Below, in pieces: positions 33,287 through 34,683 of a stretch of 64,000 nucleotides of DNA. Numbering within the stretch: the stretch's first letter is position 1; each line of letters begins with the position of its first letter. The notes under the pieces were generated by a model. It worked only from the letters and a program-made list of their open reading frames with translations, was not told the DNA's origin and did no database searches. Source of the DNA: Sorangium aterium (GTDB lineage: Bacteria; Myxococcota_A; Polyangia; Polyangiales; Polyangiaceae); contig NZ_JAQNDK010000003.1 in the NCBI RefSeq assembly GCF_028368935.1, positions 62,001 through 126,000 of the forward strand, in the 5' to 3' direction. The translations under genes were made by a program, and so were the position numbers.

Positions 33287-34129
33287 ATGGCTGTACTGAC
33301 GCTCGAGCAAGCGGCGATCCCGCTCCGACAGGCGTACCGGGAAGGCCGCCTCATTCCCTTTCTGGGCGCCGGCTTCTCTGCCCCGCTCCAGCTCCCGATG
33401 TGGAAGGAGCTGGTGGGGTGGATGGGCGCCGCGCTCGGCTTCGAGCCAGCGCTCTTCGAGCTGCACGGCCTGCCCCCTCAGCTCGCCGGCTTCTTCGCCC
33501 GGGAGTGCGCGGGCGGCCTCGACAGCTTCATCGCCGAGATGCGCGCGCGCTTCCACGCGCGGGAGGTCGACGAGCGGCGCAGGAGCTCGTGCCAGCACAA
33601 GGCCCTGGCGCGCCGCGACTTCTCGACCATCTACACGACCAACTTCGAGCACCACATCGAGGAGGCGCTGCGGGACGCGGGCAAGGAGGCCGTGGCGCTC
33701 GCCAGGTTCGACGACTTCGCGCGGTGCCCGGCGCAGGGGGCGTGCCACGTCATCAAGTTTCACGGCGATCTCGACTGGCCCGAGACGGTGGTGCTCACCG
33801 AATCCCAGTACTTCAGCCGCCTCCGGCTCGAGGCGGCGCCCGATCAGCGCCTGCGGGCCGATCTGCTCAGCAACAGCTTCCTCTTCCTCGGCTACAGCTT
33901 CGGCGACGTCGACATCCGGTACATCTGGTACCGCATGGAGCAGATGCGCATCGAGGGCAGCCCGCAGCTCGCGAAGCGCACGTCGAACCGCCGCGGCTAC
34001 TGGGCGACCTTCGGCGCCGGGCTCGTCCAGCCCGCGCTGCTCGAGGACTGGCACATCGACGTCATCGAGCTCGACCCGAACGACAAGACGAAGAGCGTCG
34101 TGCACTTGCTCGATTCGCTGGGCGGGTGA
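33287..34129 (+). CDS. SIR2-like domain protein (putative NADase effector)
   Basis: The 280-residue protein starts at the ATG at 33287, 26 residues before the first motif. It has the SIR2 signatures: FLGAGFSAP (residues 25-33) for NAD binding, IYTTNFEHHIEEA with Asn119, KFHGDLDW with catalytic His159, and FLFLGYSFGDVDIR (198-211). This matches the SIR2-like family found in bacterial immune systems, where the domain degrades NAD+ and kills or arrests infected cells, rather than deacetylating sirtuins. There is no zinc-finger Cys cluster. The next gene starts 12 bases after its stop (or overlaps it at a GTG), so the two form a bicistronic unit with the HAM1-like gene. A role in phage defence is inference from family and neighbour. 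Confidence 0.82.
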   Translation: MAVLTLEQAAIPLRQAYREGRLIPFLGAGFSAPLQLPMWKELVGWMGAALGFEPALFELHGLPPQLAGFFARECAGGLDSFIAEMRARFHAREVDERRRSSCQHKALARRDFSTIYTTNFEHHIEEALRDAGKEAVALARFDDFARCPAQGACHVIKFHGDLDWPETVVLTESQYFSRLRLEAAPDQRLRADLLSNSFLFLGYSFGDVDIRYIWYRMEQMRIEGSPQLAKRTSNRRGYWATFGAGLVQPALLEDWHIDVIELDPNDKTKSVVHLLDSLGG

Positions 34130-34140
34130 GGGCGGTGGTC

Positions 34141-34683
34141 ATGGTCTATTTCGTCTCCTCGAACCACCGCAAGCTCGCGGACATGACGTATATATGGAAG
34201 GACGCCCCGACGCCGCTCCGCGTCCTCCGGCTCGACGTGCCCCAGATCCTCTCGTCGGATCTCGACACCGTCGTACGCGAGGAGGCCCTCGCCGCCTACC
34301 GGCTCTCCCTCGTTCCGCTCTTCGTCGAGCACGGCGGCCTCTTCATCGAGCACCTGAACGGCTTTCCGGGCCCGCTCGTGATGCCGTTCTGGGAGCGGCT
34401 GCAGGACCGGATTTGCTCCCTCATCCCTCCGGGGCAGTCGCGCGCAGCGCACGTCGTCCAGAAGGTGTGTTATTGCGACGGCCGGACGCTCCGTGTCTAC
34501 ACGGGCAGCGTCCTCGGCGAGATCGCCTGCGAGCGGCGGGGAGACGAGGGCATCCACTGGGAGCCGATGTTCATCCCGGCCGGGCACACGCGCACGCTCG
34601 GGCAGATGCCTCGTGACGAGCGCCTCCGGTGCTCTGCGAGCGCGGAGGCGCTGCGGGCGTTCCGGTTCGATCTCGGGCTGTGA
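34141..34683 (+). CDS. HAM1/ITPase-fold protein, probable nucleotide sensor partner of the SIR2 protein
   Basis: The 180-residue protein aligns by eye with the HAM1/RdgB family of non-canonical purine NTP pyrophosphatases. It shares the opening FVSSNHRKL (compare TGNxxK), GGLFIEHLNGFPGPLV (compare DSGLxVDALNGxPG), and WEPMFIPAGHTRTLGQM followed by EALRAF (compare FGYDPIFxPEG...SHRxKAL). Several catalytic or substrate residues appear changed: the usual ED(S/T)GL reads EHGGL (63-67), FGYDP reads IHWEP (138-142), and the SHR motif reads SAS (165-167). That suggests binding without normal hydrolysis. ATG at 34141 has a GAGGGCGG site upstream; a GTG at 34126 overlapping the SIR2 stop is an alternative. 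The pair resembles the SIR2-HAM1 core of the Kongming system. Confidence 0.72.
   Translation: MVYFVSSNHRKLADMTYIWKDAPTPLRVLRLDVPQILSSDLDTVVREEALAAYRLSLVPLFVEHGGLFIEHLNGFPGPLVMPFWERLQDRICSLIPPGQSRAAHVVQKVCYCDGRTLRVYTGSVLGEIACERRGDEGIHWEPMFIPAGHTRTLGQMPRDERLRCSASAEALRAFRFDLGL

What the first reader, a model, noticed from the sequence alone, without database searches (positions are those of the whole stretch)
34141..34683. HAM1-fold protein with altered catalytic residues
Residues 63-67 (EHGGL), 138-142 (IHWEP) and 165-167 (SAS) differ from the conserved ED(S/T)GL, FGYDP and SHR of active ITPases, whereas the N-terminal phosphate-binding text is conserved. Partial conservation is expected of a sensor or regulatory homologue.
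Basis: partly seen in the sequence, partly recalled or inferred. Interest (0 to 1): 0.7.

Follow-up and report, generated by a model that had tools for sequence, protein, structure and literature searches.

The report
KomB-like nucleotide sensor paired with NADase
The gene encodes a catalytically altered cousin of a nucleotide-cleaning enzyme that sits beside a SIR2 NAD-destroying enzyme, so it is most likely the sensor half of a Kongming-type anti-phage alarm (KomB plus KomC), here lacking the usual signal-making enzyme KomA.

Summary
34141-34683 (+) encodes a 180-aa HAM1-fold protein with EHGGL, IHWEP and SAS where active ITPases have ED(S/T)GL, FG(Y/W)DP and SHR. The two are 45% and 56% identical to the chains of PDB 9v0g ("Helical structure of KomBC Complex"; mutant 9v12 "with dITP and NAD"), and 31-33% to Kongming KomB/KomC. 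So this is a KomB sensor plus KomC NADase, not an ITPase.

The Asp-to-His change is shared by 49 of 50 SIR2-linked HAM1 proteins compared, but by none of seven HAM1 proteins not linked to KomC. Loss of SHR marks one clade only: KomC-KomB gene order, no KomA in the locus, mostly Myxococcota, monophyletic in both protein trees. No KomA ortholog exists in the host genome. Both genes are syntenic in five Sorangium genomes and under purifying selection. The window protein has lost three further charged residues (E35Q, K48E, K81M).

Best explanation: a catalytically dead (d)ITP-type sensor that switches on an NADase. Unresolved: what makes the signal without KomA. A new variant of a known kind, moderately interesting.

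The parts
33287..34129 (+). KomC-like SIR2_2 NADase (280 aa, P0003); catalytic Asn119 (33641-33643) and His159 (33761-33763) intact
   Evidence: PF13289 E 5.5e-28; 56% identical to 9v0g chain E, 33% to KomC 8zsf; N119 and H159 invariant in 50 of 50 aligned sequences; AF2 model pLDDT 89.8, top fold matches 9v12, 9v0g, 8zsf
34141..34683 (+). KomB-like HAM1-fold sensor (180 aa, P0001), the finding
   Evidence: PF01725; 45% identical to 9v0g chain A and 31% to Kongming KomB 8zsg; AF2 model pLDDT 92.8, Z 27.9 to 9v0g
34327..34341 (+). EHGGL, residues 63-67: catalytic-position Asp replaced by His64 (34330-34332)
   Evidence: His in 13 of 13 CB-order and 36 of 37 BC-order KomB; Asp in own RdgB and Mj0226 and in five HAM1 proteins without a KomC neighbour
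34552..34566 (+). IHWEP, residues 138-142: altered FG(Y/W)DP base-pocket motif
   Evidence: D141E is shared by all five Sorangium, residue 138 varies among them (I, V, A)
34633..34641 (+). SAS, residues 165-167: lost SHR signature
   Evidence: BC-order KomB keep S-M-R (R in 34 of 34 rows with the column); CB-order rows keep R in 1 of 13

Best explanation
The gene encodes a KomB-type sensor: a HAM1/ITPase fold that has lost the catalytic aspartate and binds, rather than hydrolyses, a non-canonical purine nucleotide, most likely dITP or a close relative. It works with the SIR2 NADase encoded 11 nt upstream (KomC type). On binding the nucleotide that appears during phage infection, the KomB-KomC helical complex activates the SIR2 site (Asn119/His159), NAD+ is destroyed and the infected cell dies or stalls. 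The pair belongs to a KomA-less, order-swapped (KomC-KomB) clade, so the nucleotide must come from a source other than a dedicated neighbouring deaminase: the phage, host metabolism, or a gene elsewhere. Shown here: pairing, homology, fold, intact NADase residues, altered KomB catalytic residues, clade, absence of a KomA ortholog, purifying selection. Shown by others for relatives: dITP signalling in Kongming, and a deposited dITP/NAD complex for a member of this clade. Inferred: lack of ITPase activity, ligand identity, NADase activation and anti-phage role of this locus.
For: PDB matches of both proteins to the same complex 9v0g, titled 'Helical structure of KomBC Complex', with 9v12 'KomBCMUT in complex with dITP and NAD', 9xvc 'dITP-KomBC(H146N) Complex with NAD Fragments' and 8zsi 'HAM-SIR2 with dITP and NAD fragment'. 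Kongming mechanism: dITP binds KomB and activates KomC to deplete NAD+ (PMC12948488, PMC12774641). Adjacency of the two genes in this order in 11 fetched loci plus the window, across Myxococcota, Bacteroidota and Acidobacteriota. The KomC-KomB clade is monophyletic in the KomB tree (98/87) and in the KomC tree (SH-aLRT 92). D-to-H and loss of SHR; [quoted passage not shown] A canonical RdgB elsewhere in the genome covers housekeeping. Purifying selection on both genes.
Against: No activity, binding or phage-defence data exist for this locus. KomA, which makes the signal in Kongming, is absent from the window and the host genome. The window KomB has lost three more charged residues that its clade keeps (E35Q, K48E, K81M), so its ligand binding could differ or be failing. 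The flanking genes examined are not known defence genes, and the pair sits at one syntenic site in Sorangium, unlike a typical mobile defence island.
Confidence: 0.82

Rival explanations
1. It is still an active house-cleaning ITPase with an unusual active site, and the SIR2 neighbour is coincidental.
For: Full-length Ham1 match and fold; N8, K11 and E63 kept.
Against: The general-base position is His; SHR is lost; below the NCBIfam equivalog cut-offs (77.7 against 145.35 bits for TIGR00042); a canonical RdgB is present in the genome; pairing with the SIR2 gene is conserved across phyla.
Confidence: 0.06
2. It is a KomB-like sensor whose ligand in this clade is not dITP but another nucleotide, or a phage protein, which would explain the absence of KomA and the loss of the base-reading Arg.
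For: KomA missing from all CB loci and, as an ortholog, from their genomes; R of SHR lost in 12 of 13, the Lys53-equivalent replaced, and window-specific E35Q, K48E, K81M. In Bacteroidota and Acidobacteriota the same pair travels with a HARE-HTH/AAA protein and two methyltransferases instead.
Against: 9v12, a member of this clade (88-89% identical to the Archangium pair, with SPL in place of SHR), was deposited in complex with dITP and NAD.
Confidence: 0.25
3. The window copy of KomB is a decaying remnant, and the NADase is silent or constitutively off.
For: Three charge-changing substitutions at otherwise conserved positions, each absent from the other four Sorangium; a related genome (G375) carries a pair collapsed by deletion into one frame.
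Against: Intact frame and dN/dS of 0.20-0.28, comparable to the neighbouring aldo/keto reductase (0.14-0.23); KomC shows no strain-specific departures.
Confidence: 0.12

Closest known systems
KomBC of PDB 9v0g / 9v12 (source organism not shown by the tools; about 88-89% identical to the Archangium violaceum pair)
   Same: Same two proteins (KomB 45%, KomC 56% identity), same clade by both trees, H64 present, SHR absent, catalytic N/H of SIR2 present
   Different: 9v0g keeps E35, K48, K81, F138 and D141, which the window protein has changed; 9v12 carries Ala at the two SIR2 catalytic positions
Kongming system KomA-KomB-KomC (PDB 8zsf/8zsg/8zsi/9xvc)
   Same: KomB HAM1 fold with Asp-to-His, KomC SIR2 NADase, adjacent genes
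   Different: Here no KomA, gene order KomC-KomB rather than KomA-KomB-KomC, SHR fully lost instead of SMR, only 31-33% identity
RdgB/ITPA/Ham1 non-canonical purine NTP pyrophosphatases
   Same: Fold (Z 19.6-25.9 to E. coli, human and Pyrococcus enzymes), N8 and K11
   Different: Catalytic Asp is His, FG(Y/W)DP is IHWEP, SHR is SAS, genetically tied to a SIR2 gene
Thoeris ThsA (SIR2-SLOG) and DSR SIR2 NADases
   Same: SIR2_2 NADase domain homologous to KomC
   Different: They carry their own sensor domain; here sensing is by a separate HAM1-fold protein

Membership tests
Active RdgB/HAM1 ITPase | HAM1 fold / PF01725 | tested here: met
   98 bits against cut-off 22.5; AF2 model matches ITPases
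Active RdgB/HAM1 ITPase | Catalytic Asp in ED(S/T)GL | tested here: not met
   His64
Active RdgB/HAM1 ITPase | SHR base-recognition signature | tested here: not met
   S165 A166 S167
Active RdgB/HAM1 ITPase | NCBIfam equivalog score (TIGR00042, NF011396) | tested here: not met
   77.7 against 145.35 and 94.3 against 203 bits
Active RdgB/HAM1 ITPase | ITP/dITP/XTP hydrolysis | not testable with these tools
   needs an enzyme assay
Kongming KomBC sensor-effector module | HAM1-fold KomB with His at the catalytic Asp position | tested here: met
   H64, shared with 49 of 50 SIR2-linked KomB
Kongming KomBC sensor-effector module | Adjacent SIR2 KomC with intact catalytic Asn and His | tested here: met
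   N119 and H159; 11 nt apart
Kongming KomBC sensor-effector module | dITP binding activates NADase, helical assembly | not testable with these tools
   Seen in PDB titles for relatives only
Complete Kongming system | KomA adenosine-deaminase-family gene upstream of KomB | tested here: not met
   No KomA-profile hit in the window; the only hit in the genome is housekeeping Ada on another contig, 139 bits against about 570 for true KomA
Complete Kongming system | Anti-phage activity | not testable with these tools
   needs phage challenge

The most novel reading that the evidence does not exclude
The KomC-KomB clade without KomA is a distinct type of Kongming-like immunity: the same sensor-NADase module reads a nucleotide delivered by the phage itself, or by unlinked or alternative modules, rather than one made by a dedicated deaminase, and the Sorangium pocket has shifted ligand specificity.
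Probability: 0.3. Interest if true: 0.65.

Novelty: new variant of a known kind. Interest (0 to 1): 0.45.

Why it matters
Kongming was described as needing a dedicated deaminase (KomA) to make its alarm nucleotide. A conserved, selected clade that keeps only the sensor and the NADase would mean the alarm can be triggered without KomA, possibly straight from phage nucleotide metabolism. It also gives a sequence rule for telling sensors from house-cleaning enzymes among the many genes annotated as 'non-canonical purine NTP pyrophosphatase': ED(S/T)GL turned into EH(T/G)GL next to a SIR2 gene.

Tried and rejected
Active ITPase: rejected on residues, family cut-offs and gene pairing. KomA in trans: searched by Pfam A_deaminase, AMP_deaminase and a KomA profile; only housekeeping Ada found. 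Alternative ligand because SHR is lost: weakened when 9v12, from the same clade and also without SHR, turned out to be titled a dITP complex. The three-gene cassette seen with this pair in Bacteroidota and Acidobacteriota (HARE-HTH/AAA, methyltransferase, D12 methyltransferase) as a hidden partner: the AAA protein has no full-length match in the Sorangium, Archangium or Pyxidicoccus genomes, only a 77-residue HARE-type stretch in Sorangium. Phage-borne copies: no match in annotated phages; viral contigs gave only KomA-KomB-KomC loci. No Rfam RNA in 28-40 kb and no promoter or terminator match near the pair. Papers describing 9v0g/9v12 were not found in the library.

Full report
What is there. 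The frame 34141-34683 (+) gives a 180-residue protein that matches PF01725 Ham1 along its whole length (98 bits). The same genome has a second, canonical RdgB on another contig with EDSGL, FGYDP and SHR, so this gene is not the cell's house-cleaning enzyme.

The missed partner. Immediately upstream, 33287-34129 (+), ending 11 nt before the HAM1 start, is a 280-aa SIR2_2 protein. Against solved structures the HAM1 protein hits first 9v0g chain A (4.7e-43), then Kongming KomB 8zsg (1.4e-22), then ordinary ITPases. The SIR2 protein hits 9v0g chain E (1.5e-96), then KomC 8zsf (9e-41), then ThsA. AlphaFold2 models (pLDDT 92.8 and 89.8) have 9v0g or its mutant 9v12 as their best fold match, and the fold library supplies titles: 9v0g 'Helical structure of KomBC Complex', 9v12 'Helical structure of KomBCMUT in complex with dITP and NAD', 9xvc and 8zsi with dITP and NAD fragments. 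The published Kongming mechanism is that KomA, phage nucleotide kinases and host NDK make dITP, dITP binds KomB, and KomC depletes NAD+ (PMC12948488, PMC12774641).

Two architectures. One scan of 84,980 species gave 80 KomC-related loci; 47 have a KomB next to KomC. In 36 the order is KomB-KomC, and 16 of these have a KomA-type deaminase directly upstream. In 11 (four Sorangium, Archangium, Pyxidicoccus, a Deltaproteobacteria bin, three Bacteroidota, one Acidobacteriota) the order is KomC-KomB, as in the window, and none has KomA in the fetched locus. The KomC-KomB clade, with 9v0g inside it, is one side of a branch in the KomB tree (98/87) and the KomC tree (SH-aLRT 92); some members, notably L061 and L013, have long branches. 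A KomA profile over the host genomes gives 574 and 572 bits in two true Kongming hosts and at most 142 bits in the KomC-KomB hosts; AMP deaminase is absent from the window's genome.

What the residues say. His replaces the catalytic Asp in 13 of 13 KomC-KomB and 36 of 37 KomB-KomC proteins. Asp is present in RdgB, Mj0226 and five HAM1 proteins of related bacteria that have no KomC beside them (EDAG(L/F), FGW, SHR). The change is therefore tied to the NADase partnership. In related Maf enzymes mutation of the general-base Asp abolishes activity (PMC3899018). SHR becomes SMR in the KomB-KomC group, keeping Arg, but is lost in the KomC-KomB group (Arg in 1 of 13); the Lys at the RdgB Lys53 place is also replaced there. 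[quoted passage not shown] but 9v12, of this same clade and also lacking SHR, is titled a dITP complex, so loss of SHR does not exclude dITP. The window protein alone among 13 has Q35 and M81, and shares E48 with only one distant relative. KomC shows no such strain-specific departures, and its catalytic N119 and H159 are invariant in 50 of 50 sequences.

Conservation. The pair lies between the same neighbours (FGE-like gene upstream, aldo/keto reductase downstream) in the Sorangium genomes compared, with local inserts in two; five of six genomes of the genus have KomC. dN/dS is 0.14-0.21 for KomC and 0.20-0.28 for KomB, against 0.14-0.23 for the aldo/keto reductase. This argues against decay.

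Conclusion. It is not filed as an ITPase (catalytic features tested and not met) nor as a complete Kongming system (KomA tested and not met), but as the KomBC module in a KomA-less, order-swapped variant. Ligand, NADase activation and anti-phage function of this particular pair remain inferences.

Wider pattern. The KomB-KomC module sits behind different upstream genes: KomA (16 loci), RADAR RdrA-RdrB (L015, L029), or a PF06189 5'-nucleotidase (L047, L066). RADAR makes ITP and dITP during infection (PMC9994260), so its RdrB next to a dITP sensor is consistent with KomBC being an exchangeable inosine-nucleotide reader.

Noticed in passing
L015:3-6771 (Enterovibrio) and L029:2-6789 (Rahnella): RADAR genes RdrA and RdrB lie directly upstream of KomB-KomC (PADLOC RdrB 1480 and 1060 bits), which would couple a known (d)ITP generator to a dITP-sensing NADase; no mention of this was found in the papers searched.
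   Followed up: partly
L066:4397-5374, L047:92-1027, L034:3255-4247, L059:7030-8034: A PF06189 5'-nucleotidase (L066 matches PADLOC candidate PDC-S08) sits next to KomB-KomC, or upstream of KomA, in several loci.
   Followed up: partly
L010, L011, L012 (Bacteroidota) and L061 (Acidobacteriota), about 3.7-8.3 kb and 2.8-7.5 kb: KomC-KomB pairs are embedded with a conserved cassette: HARE-HTH/AAA protein (NUDIX-like stretch in L061), a class I methyltransferase and a D12 DNA adenine methyltransferase, in different orders in the two phyla.
   Followed up: partly
L068:5299-6876 (Oceanirhabdus): KomB and KomC are encoded in one 526-aa frame, a natural sensor-NADase fusion.
   Followed up: no
L085:1327-2247 (genome G375, same family as the host): The N-terminal half of KomC is joined in frame to the C-terminal half of KomB by a deletion of about 650 bp; a remnant, or an assembly fault.
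   Followed up: partly
L090, L091, L092 (IMG/VR contigs): KomA-KomB-KomC loci lie on predicted viral (prophage) contigs, with KomB matching the solved 8zsg sequence.
   Followed up: no
G387:C33:351495-352478 and G388:C41:20118-21086: Pyxidicoccus and Archangium, unlike Sorangium, have a second adenosine-deaminase-like gene (107-111 bits to the KomA profile) away from their KomC-KomB pair; it could supply inosine nucleotides in trans.
   Followed up: no
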